Assembly: GCF_000264905.1 (NCBI RefSeq)
Contig: NW_006763135.1
Location: 1-64,000 of the forward strand
Length of the DNA stretch: 64,000 nucleotides
Direction of reading: 5' to 3'
From: Stereum hirsutum FP-91666 SS1
Lineage: Eukaryota > Basidiomycota > Agaricomycetes > Russulales > Stereaceae
Positions 1 through 49,603 of this stretch are shown here, in pieces. Position 1 is the first letter of the stretch. Each line of letters begins with the position of its first letter. Position numbers and translations under genes: made by a program. The notes beneath the pieces were generated by a model. It did no database searches. It had not been told where the DNA came from and saw only the letters and a list, made by a program, of their open reading frames with translations.

Positions 1-63
1 GAAATTGCTCGAGTAGAACATGCATGCATACGTGGAGAGCTGTCTTTGCAGAGTAATCCTTCC

Positions 64-211
64 CAGACGGATTGTACAGTAGGAGTGCTTGCTCGAGTAC
101 CTGATACAAGCCGTCACTGCAGCGTATTCCGTCCTGGACGGATTGTGCAGTGAGCAGCTAGTGCGCACATCTAACGTGATGTGTGTGCTGTGCAATCCGT
201 CTGAGACGGAA
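64..211. repeat. Inverted repeat with a third direct copy of the arm motif
   Basis: A motif of the form CnGACGGATTGnnCAG occurs three times: at 64-79 (plus), 127-150 (plus, preceded by TTCCGTC) and 188-211 (minus). The second and third copies face each other and can pair as a stem of about 24 bp around a 37-bp loop. This is read directly from the bases. It could be the end of a transposable element that continues left of the window, or a small foldback element. No coding sequence overlaps it. Confidence 0.6.
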
Positions 212-302
212 AGTCAGCACTACCATTTACTCTCTGTAATTATTGTGTGACGTGTTTTGCATTATGGTATGTGTGCAGCGTGGGCTGTTGTACAGTGTGT
301 AC

Positions 303-1755: not shown

Positions 1756-2249
1756 TCATGGATCCACTACGCCGTTAGCTTTAAGAGCAGCTATGATAGC
1801 AGACTCAATGACAGGCACGTCGTTGAAAATACTATCTGCCACGTCCTGCCACCTGACGGGAAACGTTGTACCGTACTCGTGGGCCAGCCAATTGCGGCGA
1901 GAGATCTGGTCTTTGAGCTTGTAATGGATGTTCGGGTGCGCCTGGGCAATAGGATGCTGCTCTTTGACTGCACGGATGTTTTGGACGAGCGACTGGAGTT
2001 GGAAACCGATACCCGCACGTACACCCTCGATAGTGGCGTCCGGAATCTCACCCGACGTTGAAAAAAGCTAAATAATATGTAGTCAATTAGCCTGGGTTAT
2101 TGATGTGAAGTTGAGTTATGTAAGGGTATGGAGTGTACCTTATGGTCGAGAGTACCTCCAACATTGGCCAGTTGTTCCCTCATCCAGCGGCAGTTACGGA
2201 GTGCATTACGAAGCGCTGCTATTTCATTGGCAGCGGCGGAGGTGGCCAT
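1756..2249 (-). CDS. HepT-like HEPN domain protein (DUF86 type)
   Basis: Two exons, 2249-2139 and 2067-1756, joined in phase 0 across a 71-bp intron with a GT donor, a CTAAT branch-like site and a TTTAG acceptor, give a 140-residue protein. The length and layout fit the DUF86/HepT family: an N-terminal helix with a W-x-R-E-Q segment, a middle helix with a G-V-R-x-G-I-G core, and near residues 95-102 the signature R-N-W-L-A-H-E-Y, that is R-x4-H-x-Y. In bacterial HepT the Arg and His form the RNase site and the Tyr is the residue AMPylated by the partner MntA. The gene lies head-to-head with the nucleotidyltransferase gene starting about 0.9 kb away. The bacterial function is established; action in this fungus is inferred. 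The start was chosen because the family N-terminus begins directly there. Confidence 0.8.
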
Positions 2250-3177
2250 CTTAGAAGGAGATGGAATGGAATGGGTAGAGCGGCTGAGCTGCGATTTAGG
2301 AATACTGCTTGACTTGACGAATGATACCCAGCCGTCTTATAAGTTGCAAATAATGACCGACAGCCTTAGTAGAATGTGTCTGGTGACTGGATACTGGGTT
2401 TCACGGCACTGTAGGCGAGTCTGGTGGGAAGGTTTCTGGTTTCATGCGGATCCTGGAACTTCTGATTTGCTTGGCTGTGAGAGCGAAATCACGATATACT
2501 CACATCGAGCTGCGTTCCCAGACCACGGGGAAACCAATCAATCAGCCTTGTTGCCCATGGAAGATGTTGCTACGTGTATCAGATAGTCCTTATTGTACTG
2601 TTAACGGCCAAACTCACCGAGCTACCCATGCACGACCGCGGAACCACTCTTTAGGGCACTCTAAAGGTAACTCTAAAGCGGTTTCTAAATATTATACATG
2701 GACAACGGAAATAATATTGATTGTAGAGCCAGCTGTACTCCTACTTCGCCAGAATAATTACTACCGAGAGTCCACCTGGAGAAAACAGTAGAAAACCTAA
2801 ACCGCGACCGAACCCATGGCTGGCACCCGCTCACGAAAGAAACAGTCACGGGACTACATGGCTACAGTCAGCTCAAGATCCATAAATACTGTACGACTCG
2901 CAGAAAGCGCGAAATGGTCAACACAAAGACGACTACTTGATACTCAACATCGAGAGCGGAATGGCAAATGCCGAAGATACTGAGTCAAGTCCTCGGGGTC
3001 CCGGGATTATTTCGACCTCCGCACAATTGTCAGTCCGCATACAGTATATATGCCGAACGCAAGGCTACTAGCTCGTTCCTCATGATAGCCACGGTGCGCA
3101 GATCATTCATCCTTCCAGCATTGAGCTTGTGCACCAAGTCTTCGCGATACAGTACTCTCTATTCCGTGTCTCCCACT
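2250..3177. promoter_or_regulatory. Divergent intergenic region between HEPN and MNT genes
   Basis: About 0.93 kb separates the start codons of the two divergent genes. No convincing coding exon is seen. A TATATA at 3045-3050 lies 32 bp upstream of an ATG at 3082 and 128 bp upstream of the ATG at 3178, both in frame with the nucleotidyltransferase. The short open frames in this stretch look random. Confidence 0.4.
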
Positions 3178-4145
3178 ATGTCGATCCCAACATTTGAAGA
3201 AATGCGCTCTCGTCTACAGCCCGTTTGGGAGAAGGAAGCAAATCGAAGTATGATTCTGTGGGCTGGAATCTTTGGCTCCGTCGGACGCGGACGCGCACAA
3301 CAGCACTCTGATGTCGATATTGTCCTGGTAATGAAGAAAGGAGAACATGGTGAACCAGTGGAGCTTGAGGAAGGTGAGAAAAAACCATCATCATTATGCT
3401 GATTCCTCGCATCCAATTATCGTATTCTTGTTCTCAGACTTGAAAGGGGCATGCGCACGCGATGTGTCTTACATTCCTATATGGCGTCACCCAGACGGCG
3501 AAACATGGATGTGGGGTCACGTCCGTGTTGAGGCGCTTCTCTCTGGCCGTACTGTTTACGGAGATCGCGAAGATGTCAAGGATATGAGGCAAGAAGGGAT
3601 CGACGTGCTCGAGAAAGCCAAGGAAAAGTATGACTCCATTGCTGAGGCAGTAGGATCAATCAAATCGTGCGTTTCCCGAGCGCAGACGGTTGAGGTGAGT
3701 CTATGTGGTACTATCTATGTCATATCCATCGATGCATATGCATGTGCTGACTTGCGCCATTGCGCAGTCATTCGTCGGTCCTGGCCATCAAAAGACACGC
3801 CAGGAGTGTCTTTGTGCGCTCCGTACCATTTTACGTCTACTCGACATCCCCTATCTTGCCCATCCTAGCCGAACACTAGTCGACCGGGGTGCATTCGATG
3901 AAGCAGACAAAATACGAGAACTAATCAAGACTCTGCCATCGACTTCCATCGACCTCGAAGCTGCGATGTGGAGAGATATTTGGCCACGGTTACAGAAAGG
4001 TCATAACGCTATGTGGTGTTGGGACATTGGTTGTGCAGGAGCTCGCCTTTATATTGATCATATGTTGGCTTCTGCGAGGCTGGCGGACCACTTCGAAAGG
4101 GGAGAAGTCATCGACGATAGTCTATACGTGGATATTGTTAGGTAG
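3178..4145 (+). CDS. MntA-like minimal nucleotidyltransferase
   Basis: Exons 3178-3373, 3438-3694 and 3768-4145 (introns of 64 and 73 bp with GTGAG donors) code for 276 residues. Residues 33-47 read G-S-V-G-R-G-R-A-Q-Q-H-S-D-V-D, exactly the G-S-x10-D-x-D signature of MNT-fold AMP/NMP transferases such as MntA. A third acidic residue, probably D74, follows in the next strand. A G-R-T-V-Y-G turn near residue 105 also fits the fold. Bacterial MntA modifies and silences the HepT toxin; the HEPN partner gene is divergent next door. The last 125 residues have no counterpart in the short bacterial protein, and I could not assign them. An in-frame upstream ATG at 3082 would add 32 residues rich in Arg, Ser and Thr without acidic residues, resembling a mitochondrial presequence. 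Confidence 0.8.
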
Positions 4146-11861: not shown

Positions 11862-13385
11862 ATGTCTGACTCGGTGATCCATTCTATCGCTGGTTCCGCT
11901 GGAGGGATTGTGGCCATGACGGCGACATAGCAAGTCCAATACTCCCATCTTGAGGTGGTTACCCATGAAGGCTGACAAGTCGGCATCGCTACTGTTGGAC
12001 AGTCCCCTCATATTCTTGTCGACTCGCGCTGCGATGGAGACGAAACGCGAGAATAAGGTGCGTTCTAGTGTTTTTGCCACGTCTTCTGGTTCCGTATTGC
12101 CACCCGTTCGATTCGTTAGAGAGGTTTTGAGAGGTCAGATGTTCATTGTACTCTGTGCAACATTCTAGACGATATACCAGGCCGTTCTCGATGTCATCAA
12201 GAAGGAGGGAGCACTGGGGATGTACACCGGTTTGAGCTCAAGTCTCGTCGGGATTGCTGTCACGAATGGGTGAGTTCCATGCATAAAGCCGCTGTAATCT
12301 ATACGACCAACTTCAAGAGATCGATTGCTAACGTTGTGACTGCCGACAGCGTTTACTACTTCTTCTATGAGTATAGTAAGGGCGCTATCCTCCGAGCGCG
12401 TAAGGGTACGAAAGCGCTATCGACGCTAGAGTCCATCCTCGCGGGTTTGATTGCAGGTACGTCAAAATTACCCCTCAATCCTGTTCACCCTATCAATGCT
12501 TGCGAATCAGGCTCGGCAACAACTATAATCAGCAATCCAATCTGGGTTGTACAAACATCCCAAGCCGTCAGCGGCATGAACCACTCGCCAACTCCCTCCG
12601 ATCCTTCCTCTTCGTCCTCAGCGCCAGTCAAACAACAGCGAAAACTTGGAACGATCGAAACCTTCCTCCATATTCTCAATACCGACGGACCAGCCGCGTT
12701 TTTCCGAGGCCTAGGTCCAGCACTTGCGCTAGTGGCCAACCCTGTTATTCAGTATACCGTATTCGAGCAATTGAAGAATGCCGTTGTAAGACGGAGGAAG
12801 GCGAGTGGAGCAGGAGGGAAAGGAAATGTGTTGACGGACTGGGATTTCTTTTTCTTGGGGGCGCTATCGAAACTTGGTAAGTCGCAATTTCTGACGTGCT
12901 CATCGCATGGCCACTGATACTCCATGCGCACGTTCTGCAGTCGCAACTGGGACGACCTATCCATACATGTAAGCCCTAGATTTATCATCATTTCCTCTAT
13001 GTTATTTTCATCTAAGACATCGTCGCCTAATCTCTCCCGCTCTCGCAGTGTCATCAAATCTCGACTGCAGGCTAACCACGAACACGCAAAGCAATACCGC
13101 TCTGCATGGCACGGTATCCGCACCGTTCTCCGTGAAGAAGGCGTCGAGGGTTTATACAAGGGAGCGCCGAGTAAGCTGCTTCAGAGTGTGTTGACGGCGG
13201 CAATCTTGTTTGCGGGTCAGAGAAGGATATACGAGATCACCAAGAAGGTGCGTCTTTCTTTTGTTAACTCTTAACTGCTAGTTAGGCATAAAGTTCCCTA
13301 CCGAGCTCCATCAACGAGAGGATGAAATATTGATTAAACACTTCAACTATATGTCTAGGCGATCTCGACGGTGGGAACGAAGTGA
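11862..13385 (+). CDS. Peroxisomal adenine nucleotide carrier (PMP47/ANT1 type)
   Basis: Eight exons (11862-11929, 12003-12057, 12169-12269, 12350-12456, 12511-12876, 12941-12968, 13049-13247, 13359-13385) give 316 residues. Three mitochondrial-carrier repeats are visible, each with its Pro-containing signature: T-Y-P-L followed by S-T-R; S-N-P-I-W-V-V; and T-Y-P-Y-I followed by K-S-R. These variants of P-x-[DE]-x-x-[KR] are typical of the PMP47/ANT1/SLC25A17 branch, which exchanges ATP/AMP (and CoA or NAD in some members) across the peroxisomal membrane for fatty acid oxidation. The first intron begins with GC (GCAAGT) and not GT; only this splice restores the T-Y-P-L motif. An Asn/Pro/Ser-rich loop near residue 130 is longer than usual. 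Confidence is high for the family, moderate for the last two small exons. Confidence 0.9.
11930..12002 (+). other. GC-AG intron
   Basis: The splice donor reads TA|GCAAGT and the acceptor GGACAG. GT-AG alternatives do not keep the frame or the first carrier signature, and unspliced reading meets a TAG at once. GC-AG introns with an AAGT context are the known minor U2 class. Confidence 0.75.
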
Positions 13386-38601: not shown

Positions 38602-41030
38602 ATGCCATCCTGGTCTCGTCTACCCACTTCCCTCGGGTCCCTCATCCCTCCGGAGCCACACTCAACATGCGTCTCCCTCCCTGCCTGGTCAGACGTACAC
38701 GGCATCGCGCTCGAAGACCCGAAGGTTCTCGGACAGCTAAAGATGACATACCCGAGGATGTGGATTCATGAGAGCATCGTCAAGGTTCGTCCCTTTTACT
38801 CTCTGTCTGCCCGGTGTTCCTTCCATAGATATGTGAAACAGGGATATTAGAGACGTATACTCATGCGTAATTCTTTTAACTCTACAGCTCGCATCCATCT
38901 TTGAACAAAAATACGCCACCTCTCCCTCCGAACGCGCCCTCCTCCTCCCGTCCTCCCACCTCGCCTCCCTCTCCCAAAAATGGCTCATCGCAAACGCCTT
39001 TTCCTCTAATAATACGTCAAAATCTACCACCGCCACCGCCACCGCGTCTCCAGCTGCTCGCCTCCTCTCATCCGAACAAAACCAGCTCCTTCCAGCCTCC
39101 AGCTACCCCGAGGTTCAAGTCTACGTGGTGATGGTACAGGAGCAATATTGGACACTCGCCATGAGTCTCTGGACGCATTGTGGGTTTGGGGTGAGCAGTC
39201 GGTTGGTGGAGCGGTATTTGACGTTGTTGGAGGCAGAGGAAGAGGAACAGAAGCATGAGCAGGAGGGATTCCGGTTGTTGGAGAAGGGAAATGTGAAAGC
39301 GAAGAGGAACGGAAATGCGCGCGCTACGAACGGGAATGGACATCTATCGAACGGTCATGCCTTCACCAACGGCGATGCAGCTAACATCAACCAATCCATT
39401 GACCCAACGCACCCCTTCTTCAACACCTCCGCCACCTCCGGCGCCCTCATCTCAGCCGGCACGGAAGCTAAAACCGTCATTCGTAGCCGTATCGCCTCGT
39501 TCGCGTCCTCCGAGTCGAATCCTATCGATCCCGAAGACGTCTTTCTGTTTCCGAATGGGATGATGGCGGTGTGGAGTGCGCATAGGTTGGTTATGGAGAG
39601 TATGGGTGAGGGCAGGAGCGTATGTTTTGGGTGGGTGCTTTTCCACCGCTCCGTATCCGCGTCTGTTTGCTTACTGACTATACGACTCTGATTGTAGGTT
39701 CACGTACTGCGATACTATCAAATTCCTTCAGGAATGGGGACCGGGCTGTATCTTCTACCCGGACGGTTCAGAGTCCGACATCGACGCACTCGAAGCACTG
39801 CTCGAGCAGCAGCACCTCAACGCCGATACTCCGGCCGCTCCTCCCATAAAAGCCCTCTTCACCGAAAGGCCCTCCAACCCCCTCCTCCGCACCGCCAACC
39901 TCCCCCGCCTGCGCGAACTCGCGGATCGGTACGGCTTCGTGGTCGTGGTGGATGATACGGTCGGAAGCTGGGTGAATGTGGATGTGATGACGCCGGGGTA
40001 TGCGGATGTGGGGGTTTGTAGTTTGACGAAGTGGTTTAGTGGGCGGGCGAATGTCATGGGCGGGAGGTACGTGTGTTTCCGTTCCCACAACTGTAGCTGC
40101 TATTATCCGCCTTTTTATCCAATTATCGAGCCGCGCGTTCGAAGAGTTGTACTAACTATCGAATTTACGTTTAGTTTGATCCTCAATCCATCCTCGCCAC
40201 ACCACGCCCTCTTACGTTCGACCATGCTCAATACGACCAAAAATCCCTCCGATATCCCCTCTTCGGACATCTTCTTCCCCACCGAAGCCCTCGTCATGGA
40301 ATACAACTCGCGCGACTACCTCCCCCGTATGCGTATCCTCAATCATCGTGCTGCGGTCTTGGTTGAGTTCTTGAGGCGCAAGATGGAGATGGAGGGGGGA
40401 AATGGGGTTAAATGCGCAGGCGTGATCAAGCGCGTTATGTATCCCGATTCACAAACGACGGAGAACTACGAGCTTTGTCGGCGTCGATATCCTCTCGTAT
40501 CTCACCCCTCCAATTGCCCCCTTCCCTCCGACGCCCCATCCTCCCTTTCACACCCGAACAAAGGACAATACAAAATCGAACCAGGCTACGGTCCCCTCCT
40601 CTCACTCCTGTTCCACACACCCGCACAGGCACGCACGTTCTACGACGCTCTCAAGAGTCCGAAGGGAACGTCGTTCGGGACGCCGTTTAGTATGACTTTA
40701 CCGTATGTTTTGATCGTTTATGGGGGTCAGTCTAGTGGAGATGTGGACTCGGTTCAGGGAGAAGGGGACGGCGGAGGGAAGGAAGAGAAGCAGGATTTGA
40801 GGTGGGCGGCGGAGAGGGGGATGGAGGAGGGGTTGGTTAGGGTTTGTGTGGGGTGGGAGGATGAGTGTGAGGGGGGAGTGGAGGAGGATGGGATGGAGCT
40901 GGTTCGGGAGTTCGAGAGGGCGTTGAGGGTCGTTGAGGAGATGGAGGTGGGTGGGAATGCGTGGAAGGTGAATGGCGAGGCGAAGGTGAAGGTGAGTGGG
41001 AATGGGCATGCGAGTACGAATGTTGCTTGA
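38602..41030 (+). CDS. Cystathionine gamma-synthase (PLP enzyme), intact copy
   Basis: Exons 38602-38784, 38888-39630, 39698-40066 and 40175-41030 give 716 residues. The N-terminus carries L-G-S-L-I-P-P-E-P-H and S-L-P-A-W, as in fungal Str2/Met-7 enzymes. The catalytic domain has F-L-F-P-N-G-M-M-A-V-W, F-T-E-R-P-S-N-P-L-L, V-V-D-D-T-V-G-S and S-L-T-K-W-F-S-G with the PLP lysine at about 420. The enzyme joins an activated homoserine ester with cysteine to make cystathionine, a step in transsulfuration towards methionine. Two low-complexity stretches rich in Asn/Gly and Glu/Val make it longer than usual. The start at 38602 is chosen because the family N-terminus follows at once. The first donor is the weak GTTCGT. 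A broken duplicate starts about 5.3 kb downstream. Confidence 0.88.
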
Positions 41031-47699: not shown

Positions 47700-48092
47700 G
47701 TTTGACCCTGTCGTTGTCGCCAGTAGGAGCCACAAGGACAGTCGGACCACAGTCAAGTAAGACGGTGTTAGGCTTTTGCTTACTTTCGACGCCTATATCG
47801 GATTTCTCTCTCTTCCATTCTCTTCCAGAACCTTCTCCATCGACAAGGCCGGTGCGATCATTGAATGCAGGGGTGTACGTGTACATGAAATTAATGCTCG
47901 TGGATAGGGCCAGGCGGCGACTTCGTCGCCACAGAAACTAGCAGAGCTCTCGAGCCAGACCCGCGTCACACGTCGCTATTCTTGGAGTTTATGTGGCTCG
48001 TACATCTCTCGCCATATACATACTGTGGGGGACTTTCCCCACGTCCACACCAAATTCTCTCTACCACAACCTTTCTCCCGAGATCCCACAAT
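47700..48092. other. Upstream region of the P450-like gene
   Basis: No gene supported. Short open frames on both strands, none recognisable. Confidence 0.35.
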
Positions 48093-49603
48093 ATGCTTTG
48101 CACCATAGCCTCTATTATTCTATTCTTTCTCATCGTGGTCAAAGGCCTCACATTGATTCCGTCGTAGGTCTTCTCAGCCTCATTTTTACTTACGGTTTCC
48201 CTGACTGCAATGTTTTTCGACCTAGTTGGAACCACGGCCGCCACAACTCGAAGTTACCGTCCCAGAACATACTGCAAGATGCCATCCACACCCTCGCATC
48301 CAGCACCCTCCATGATCGTATCTCCGTGCCCGCCAACAAATCTATCGAAGCTCTCTTTCAAGTGCGAAACCCATTCGTATCATGCTCGTCCGCATTTAAG
48401 CAACACTGGCGTCAAACCCTCCTCCTCCATTTTCTGCACACAAATGCGGGCGACTGGACCGACATCGCTGCAGCTGCTTTATCCGCATTTCGTCCCCTCA
48501 TTGACACTCTCCAGCGCGAAGGTAGCCAGGCGACCTATACAAGAATCGCGGTGCAGGATGTCAGTAGGGACGTCACTTTAGCGGCGGTACTACGGGCACT
48601 CTTCGGTCTCGATAACGTTCCTTCAGCGACACTCACCTACGTCGGGAAAGAAGTACAGGACCTATTCCTCGCGAAGAAGGCTTTCGATGCGTCATGTCGA
48701 CCCGTCGAGGATATTCCTCTTTTACTACGAAAGCGTACGGATGCTCTCATCGCCACACTCCGGACACTCCTCACGTCTTCCAGCATGGATTCAGGATCTC
48801 CCTCCCCGCCTCATTCATCCTTAGTTGAGGCTCTTCTATGCACCTCGTTCGACGACGTTCACGAGGGACAGGCATTTAATCCTTTGAGTCTCATCATTCC
48901 CGCCTTCGAATCATCATGGCGTGTTGCATTCTACACGCTCCTCGCCACACTCCAACCCTCTACAACAACATCGTCGCCAACCTCAGATCATCAACAATAC
49001 GTTCTCGCGCTACGAAATCACCGTCCACATGATAAACCTTCCTCACTCGTCCAGGCCATCATTTCCGAGACACTCAGACTATACCCTCCGGTTCGCCGTC
49101 TCCGCCGCCGCCGCACTTCGAGCTCTGATCCCGACTCTTACGCGGTCATCGACATCGAGCGTATACATCGGGATGAGCAATACTGGGGATCAGACGCTCT
49201 CGACTTTCGGCCTTCGAGATTCCTAGCGGATGATGGGACGTTCAAGGTCCCTGTACTGGTCGGGGGCGGAAGCCGAAGCGGAGGGAATGATCAGAGTGAG
49301 GCGGGAGAAGCTTGGATGCCTTTTGCAGCGGGGAGCGTGAGGTGTCCTTCTGCGAAGGGGTATGCCGTCAGGATGGTGGCGACGGTGGTGGGCGAGGTGA
49401 TGAGGGGTATATTTGCTGGTGATGACAGTGGTGAGCAGAAGATGGTGTGGCGATGGTGGTGGGAAGGACTGGAAGACGAACGTCCTATCGTGGACGAAAC
49501 CTACGGTGATCATAAGGCGGAGGATGTGAGTTCGAATACGCGAGTATTGAAGGCTGGAAGGGATGAGTATGGAGGAGTTGCTCTTTGTGTGACTCGTATA
49601 TGA
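48093..49603 (+). CDS. Cytochrome P450-like protein with altered haem motif
   Basis: Exons 48093-48163 and 48226-49603, joined by a GTAGGT...CCTAG intron, give 482 residues. The N-terminus is a hydrophobic membrane anchor (M-L-C-T-I-A-S-I-I-L-F-F). P450 marks follow: E-T-L-R-L-Y-P-P as the ExxR helix, F-R-P-S-R-F as the PERF-like motif, and F-A-A-G-S-V-R-C-P-S as the haem loop. Compared with F-x-x-G-x-R-x-C-x-G, the Cys is at the right place, but the Arg position holds Val and the last Gly is Ser. The I-helix acid-Thr pair is not evident; the region reads S-L-I-I-P-A-F-E-S-S-W-R. It may be a divergent monooxygenase or a P450 that has lost normal oxygen activation. The single long second exon is unusual for this family. 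Confidence 0.7.

What the first reader, a model, noticed from the sequence alone, without database searches (positions are those of the whole stretch)
1756..4145. A HepT-MntA-like (HEPN/MNT) pair encoded by intron-bearing genes in a fungus
Seen: two divergent genes, one with R-x4-H-x-Y in a DUF86-type helical protein of 140 residues, the other with G-S-x10-D-x-D in an MNT-fold protein. Known: in bacteria and archaea this is the signature of the HepT RNase toxin and its AMP-transferase antitoxin MntA, where MntA AMPylates the HepT tyrosine. Inference: a basidiomycete has captured both halves and kept every catalytic and acceptor residue. The three introns rule out simple bacterial contamination. 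The divergent arrangement differs from the overlapping bacterial operon. A eukaryotic nuclear toxin-antitoxin-like or RNA-defence module of this kind would be new to my knowledge.
Basis: partly seen in the sequence, partly recalled or inferred. Interest (0 to 1): 0.92.

Follow-up and report, generated by a model that had tools for sequence, protein, structure and literature searches.

The report
Toxin–antitoxin-like gene pair in a mushroom
A wood-rotting fungus carries, side by side and with predicted introns, two genes that match the two halves of a bacterial toxin–antitoxin pair in sequence and in predicted shape; one likely cuts RNA and the other would switch it off by attaching AMP to it.

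Summary
In Stereum hirsutum, a 140-aa minus-strand protein (two exons) carries R-x4-H-x-Y, and a 276- or 308-aa plus-strand protein (three exons) carries G-S-x10-D-x-D. The genes diverge, 832 or 928 bp apart. Alone, the first protein hits Pfam HepT weakly (E=0.019). Its family, found in at least four orders of Agaricomycetes, aligns with bacterial HepT along its length (score 34.4; best of 199 shuffles 20.2). By VIA-align, the predicted folds have partners of the same HepT–MntA complexes as best matches, with modest Z for the helical one. The second protein belongs to a fungal family with an MntA-like domain plus a helical half that MntA lacks.

Against a strict pair: one HEPN gene was found but five MNT copies (two broken), all near contig ends; only this one has a detected HEPN neighbour. 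Grifola has both on one contig, 16 locus tags apart, but its HEPN model lacks H and Y. The MNT has a basic, possibly mitochondrial N-terminus. RNase activity, AMPylation and toxicity are untested.

Verdict: most likely a fungal variant of the type VII toxin–antitoxin; prokaryotic origin is inferred.

The parts
1756..2249 (-). HEPN (HepT-like) gene, 140 aa; exons 2249..2139 and 2067..1756, intron 2138..2068
   Evidence: Splice enumeration; identical public protein STEHIDRAFT_155100; both exons match the fungal HEPN profile, which includes this protein
1873..1896 (-). codons of R95-N-W-L-A-H100-E-Y102 (R-x4-H-x-Y): predicted RNase dyad and predicted AMP-acceptor Tyr
   Evidence: coordinates; conservation R 16 of 18, H 15 of 18, Y 17 of 18 fungal rows (rows are records, some from one gene)
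2250..3081 (.). 832-bp divergent intergenic region (928 bp if the MNT starts at 3178)
   Evidence: gene models
3082..4145 (+). MNT (MntA-like nucleotidyltransferase) gene, 308 aa from 3082 or 276 aa from 3178; exons ..3373, 3438..3694, 3768..4145
   Evidence: same two intron positions in the gene models of paralogues C2start and C2end; Pfam PF18765 29.4 bits and PF01909 24.7 bits, both over cut-off
3082..3177 (+). N-terminal extension of 32 codons, basic, no Asp/Glu, with R-Y-S-T; possible mitochondrial presequence
   Evidence: same 32-codon spacing in paralogue C2start; hydrophobic moment not high
3274..3318 (+). G-S-x10-D-x-D nucleotidyltransferase motif
   Evidence: G, S, D, D identical in 9 of 9 aligned family members
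3563..4145 (+). approximate extent of the C-terminal half (contains the second intron), predicted helical bundle, absent from bacterial MntA
   Evidence: coordinates; AlphaFold2 model of Gymnopus homologue P0003; no clear hhalign similarity to HEPN profiles

Best explanation
The locus encodes a fungal relative of the HepT family beside a two-domain relative of MntA, and the pair likely works like the bacterial type VII toxin-antitoxin: the HEPN protein would cut RNA and the nucleotidyltransferase would silence it by AMPylating Tyr102. Shown here: the open gene models, the family assignments by sequence with agreeing predicted folds, conservation of the R-x4-H-x-Y and GSx10DxD residues, introns predicted at conserved places, purifying selection on the MNT coding region. 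Inferred: RNase activity of R95/H100, AMP transfer to Y102, physical interaction, shared regulation from the divergent promoter region, ultimate prokaryotic origin. The position near contig ends, the broken paralogues and the patchy spread fit an accessory conflict or defence module (antiviral RNA cleavage or poison-antidote) better than housekeeping; that too is inference.
Confidence: 0.45

Rival explanations
1. The two proteins are true relatives of HepT and MntA but work apart: the MNT family is a stand-alone, possibly mitochondrial nucleotidyltransferase with an aminoglycoside-transferase-like two-domain layout, HEPN is a solo RNase, and their adjacency is incidental clustering of accessory genes near a contig end.
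For: Five MNT copies but one HEPN; no HEPN detected near the other four; basic N-terminal extensions on MNT; kanamycin/ANT(4'') enzymes among sequence and structure hits, though with rmsd about 13 over the whole chain; three named species with MNT only and four with HEPN only.
Against: The best structural matches of the two models are the two partners of the same complexes; linkage in two orders (Stereum; Grifola with a doubtful HEPN model); the acceptor-type Tyr is as conserved as the catalytic residues.
Confidence: 0.33
2. A domesticated pair: HEPN has become the substrate-binding or regulatory subunit of the nucleotidyltransferase, and RNase toxicity is lost or irrelevant.
For: P0018 loses R and H and P0024 loses H, while both keep E and Y; the 2013 HEPN survey describes such exaptation of HEPN as substrate-binding or regulatory domains (PMC3710099, passages read).
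Against: R95 and H100 are kept in 16 and 15 of 18 rows, including the Stereum protein.
Confidence: 0.15
3. Chance: a helical protein with a fortuitous R-x4-H-x-Y beside an unrelated nucleotidyltransferase, or bacterial contamination.
For: Single-sequence Pfam E is only 0.019; Foldseek top hits for the HEPN model are unrelated helical bundles; no HEPN relative among solved structures by sequence, alone or as a family profile.
Against: Family-level profile alignment beyond all 199 shuffles; 12 of 18 members hit PF01934 at E<=1; introns, a 2.7-Mb contig, and homologues in at least four fungal orders.
Confidence: 0.05

Closest known systems
HepT-MntA (class I HEPN/MNT, type VII toxin-antitoxin), Shewanella oneidensis SO_3166/SO_3165 and relatives
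   Same: R-x4-H-x-Y in a HEPN protein of DUF86 type; GSx10DxD in an MNT-domain protein; adjacent genes; best VIA-align matches of both models
   Different: Eukaryotic, with predicted introns; divergent genes 0.8-0.9 kb apart rather than an MNT-first dyad; MNT about twice as long with a helical C-terminal half and a basic N-terminal extension; extra MNT copies without a detected HEPN; shifted third carboxylate
Class II HEPN/MNT dyads (PF05168/PF01909) of cyanobacteria, Anaerolineales and Planctomycetota
   Same: The four prokaryotic loci that the MNT scan returned are of this type, 4 of 4 with a PF05168 gene beside the MNT
   Different: Their HEPN partners show no profile similarity to the fungal HEPN and belong to another HEPN family
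Kanamycin/aminoglycoside nucleotidyltransferases, ANT(4'')
   Same: Nucleotidyltransferase domain followed by a helical C-terminal domain; weak sequence and structure hits
   Different: Whole-chain superposition is poor (rmsd about 13); the sequence match covers the nucleotidyltransferase motif region only
Eukaryotic HEPN RNases (Las1, Ire1/RNase L KEN, Swt1; from PMC3710099)
   Same: HEPN RNase domains in eukaryotes
   Different: Those are other HEPN families; the same survey lists the DUF86 (HEPN-M) family as Bacteria, Archaea (table passage read)

Membership tests
HepT (PF01934/DUF86, HEPN-M) | Sequence similarity to the family | tested here: met
   Family profile against bacterial HepT is beyond all 199 shuffles and 12 of 18 members hit PF01934 at E<=1; the single protein alone is below Pfam's cut-off (15.1 of 23.5 bits)
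HepT (PF01934/DUF86, HEPN-M) | R-x4-H-x-Y motif | tested here: met
   R95, H100, Y102 present; in register with the bacterial motif
HepT (PF01934/DUF86, HEPN-M) | HEPN helical-bundle fold | tested here: inconclusive
HepT (PF01934/DUF86, HEPN-M) | RNase activity and toxicity | not testable with these tools
   needs bench work
MntA antitoxin | MNT domain with GSx10DxD | tested here: met
   PF18765 and PF01909 over cut-off; 9 of 9 rows keep G, S, D, D
MntA antitoxin | NCBIfam equivalog NF047752 (MntA) over its cut-off | tested here: not met
   28.9 bits against a cut-off of 60 (E 8.2e-7)
MntA antitoxin | Small single-domain protein (<150 aa, as stated in PMC7641770) | tested here: not met
   276 or 308 aa with an extra helical half
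MntA antitoxin | Third metal-binding carboxylate (D71 of S. oneidensis MntA) | tested here: inconclusive
   aligned column is Ser; D or E two residues earlier in 9 of 9
HepT-MntA type VII module | Genes adjacent and conserved as a pair | tested here: inconclusive
   Adjacent in Stereum; on a contig of the same length, 16 locus tags apart, in Grifola; 4 of 5 Stereum MNT loci lack a detected HEPN
HepT-MntA type VII module | AMPylation of the HEPN tyrosine by MNT | not testable with these tools
   needs bench work

The most novel reading that the evidence does not exclude
Mushroom-forming fungi run a nuclear, intron-bearing type VII toxin-antitoxin: a HEPN RNase held off by AMPylation from an enlarged MntA that is made in cytosolic and mitochondrial forms, spread and lost near chromosome ends as a poison-antidote or antiviral module.
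Probability: 0.3. Interest if true: 0.9.

Novelty: new variant of a known kind. Interest (0 to 1): 0.72.

Why it matters
[quoted passage not shown] A conserved family of HepT relatives in at least four orders of Agaricomycetes, one of them beside an MntA relative, makes directly testable whether AMPylation-controlled RNase toxins work inside eukaryotic cells, for defence against mycoviruses or as selfish elements. My seven literature searches (open-access PMC only) listed no paper that I could recognise, by title, abstract start or the passages read, as describing such a pair in fungi.

Tried and rejected
Bacterial contamination: rejected (predicted introns, 2.7-Mb contig, public Stereum protein, fungal homologues).

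HEPN hidden in the C-terminal half of the MNT: no similarity to class-II HEPN or the fungal HEPN. Against class-I HepT, P is 0.009 over 28 columns, a P-value that shuffled HEPN profiles also reach (best 0.0069), although its score of 21.2 is slightly over their maximum of 20.2. Inconclusive rather than excluded. Class I and class II HEPN, which are said to be related, also show no similarity here (P 0.21), so the test is not sensitive.

A second HEPN gene in Stereum: three protein queries found only the window gene plus two chance-level matches (E 0.07 and 0.84). PF01934 itself found none in the whole genome, not even the window gene, so that profile alone would have missed it.

Prokaryotic donors: the HEPN scan of the genome-contig collection gave 67 pattern matches and 0 relatives; viral contigs 0 relatives for both; the MNT scan gave 4 loci matching the nucleotidyltransferase domain only. 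These scans need near-exact short peptides, so absence is weak. Plasmid searches gave only E 4–5 matches for HEPN and weak nucleotidyltransferase hits for MNT (E 0.1–0.9). Origin stays open.

Solved structures by sequence: no HEPN relative from the single protein or the family profile. PADLOC: no HEPN hit; eight MNT hits to PDC-S09 and PDC-M05A candidates, not pursued. Telomere repeats: no arrays in the outermost 1000 bases of the five contig ends looked at (the C15 start reads N where printed), so 'subtelomeric' is inferred from distance to contig ends. The bound of 2.5e-6 for five copies near ends assumes independent copies. Mitochondrial targeting: no predictor available; the extension's hydrophobic moment (0.26–0.40) is lower than that of the Stereum HEPN N-terminus (0.56), and two of six extensions hold one acidic residue, so composition alone carries that idea. 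The first attempt at paralogue gene models failed through wrong coordinate ranges; repeated.

Rows dropped or doubled: P0014 and P0015 (apparent intron read-through) were left out of the modelling alignment A4 (16 of 18); P0014, P0015, P0019, P0021, P0025 and P0026 out of the hhalign profile (12 of 18). 3 of 18 bacterial HepT loci did not fit my motif expression and were left out, so '15 of 15 have the motif' is by construction; two of the 15 rows are one protein (L031, L035), and dropping one left the score unchanged. Counts over the 18 fungal rows are counts of records; P0013–P0015 share one core sequence.

Full report
Identity and gene models. The 140-aa protein encoded on the minus strand at 2249..1756 is identical to STEHIDRAFT_155100 of Stereum hirsutum FP-91666 SS1, of the Russulales; that it is a wood-decay fungus is recalled. 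The window is the first 64 kb of contig C5 (2.7 Mb) of a 46-Mb, 38-contig genome. The HEPN gene has one intron (2138..2068). The MNT gene on the plus strand has two (3374..3437, 3695..3767) and two plausible starts, 3082 and 3178. Two further intact MNT copies in the genome can be read with introns at the same two places (one with a GC donor). Some unnamed homologues look like genomic frames that read through the same introns (P0004, P0010, P0015), which also supports the positions. The introns are inferred from sequence; no RNA was examined.

Copies in Stereum. The genome holds five detected MNT copies: C5:3178, C2:2082, C15:45155, C2:3697469 and C6:about 9170. C5, C2start and C2end are intact as gene models; C15 and C6 carry stops. 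Each lies within 46 kb of a contig end (contig lengths); if copies were independent, the chance would be about 2.5e-6. C5 and C2start differ with dN 0.24 and dS 1.34, so the protein is under purifying selection; for C5 against C2end dS is saturated. A profile of 15 fungal HEPN records found the window gene but nothing beyond chance (best other E 0.33) in the 2–14 kb searched on each side of the other four copies. By contrast, each of 18 bacterial HepT loci, from three genomes, holds an ORF with an MNT motif within 1 kb of the locus centre (17 with exact GSx10DxD; two loci overlap; no chance control was run).

Pairing. For: the only detected HEPN gene lies under 1 kb from an MNT gene (chance about 4e-4 genome-wide, 5e-3 if both are confined to contig ends). 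In Grifola both annotated proteins lie on a contig of 1,138,767 bases, locus tags 16 apart. Against: four MNT copies without a detected HEPN; 2 of 9 named species with both; a Grifola HEPN model that departs from the family after RRNWL. Absence from annotated proteomes is weak evidence, because none of the 8 hits bears the name Stereum although three intact genes can be read.

Localisation. The 32-residue extension from the upstream ATG has no acidic residue in the C5 and C2start copies, nor have the extensions of the Grifola and Leucoagaricus proteins; those of C2end and Leucocoprinus P0007 have one. All six are basic. C5 and C2start have R-Y-S-T, which resembles a processing site (recalled). 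Their hydrophobic moments are not high. The unnamed relative P0004 lacks the internal Met, so there the extension should be translated. The Stereum HEPN has no such extension. If only the long MNT form is made, the two proteins may sit in different compartments; two forms from two starts would resolve this. This is prediction only.

Mechanism. I commit to a HepT–MntA-like working mode with probability about 0.45: HEPN cuts RNA with R95/H100 and MNT transfers AMP to Y102. The step order comes from Shewanella (PMC7641770, passages read). The stronger rival is independent function of two true relatives (0.33), then domestication of HEPN as a subunit (0.15). As membership, HEPN can be filed as HepT-like (DUF86). 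The MNT resembles MntA by domain and motif but fails two MntA criteria (curated score, size), so I call it an MntA-related two-domain family, not MntA.

Novelty. The HEPN survey of 2013 lists the DUF86 family in Bacteria, Archaea (PMC3710099, passages). A 2014 survey of fungal domains lists Pfam HEPN, without DUF86, among fungal domains (PMC4102429, passages). Seven literature searches in the open-access library listed nothing recognisable on a fungal pair; subscription papers are not covered. Fungal poison–antidote systems of other kinds are known (recalled), so the new element is this type in a eukaryotic nucleus.

Noticed in passing
G000 C2:2082, C2:3697469, C15:45155, C6:9170 (L007, L009, L008, L010): Four further copies of the MNT gene, each within 46 kb of a contig end; two intact, two with stop codons.
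   Followed up: yes
L009 about 4980: The C2end copy appears to use a GC-AG second intron where C5 and C2start have GT-AG.
   Followed up: partly
window 3082-3177: Basic, acid-free N-terminal extension of the MNT followed by a second in-frame start, suggesting two forms, perhaps mitochondrial and cytosolic.
   Followed up: partly
proteins P0018 and P0024: Fungal HEPN relatives that have lost R and H, or H alone, of the RNase motif but keep the Tyr: possible inactive or regulatory forms.
   Followed up: partly
genome G004 (Roseofilum, via L018): 16 HepT-like matches in one cyanobacterial genome, each with an MNT-motif ORF near by.
   Followed up: partly
window 58-220: Short repeated motif around GACGGATTGT-CAGT, in direct and inverted copies near the contig start (seen by eye).
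   Followed up: no
window 12120-12917, 39678-41030, 47942-49603: Pieces of ordinary genes: mitochondrial carrier, Cys/Met-metabolism PLP enzyme, cytochrome P450 (3 of 10 long ORFs with a Pfam hit).
   Followed up: partly
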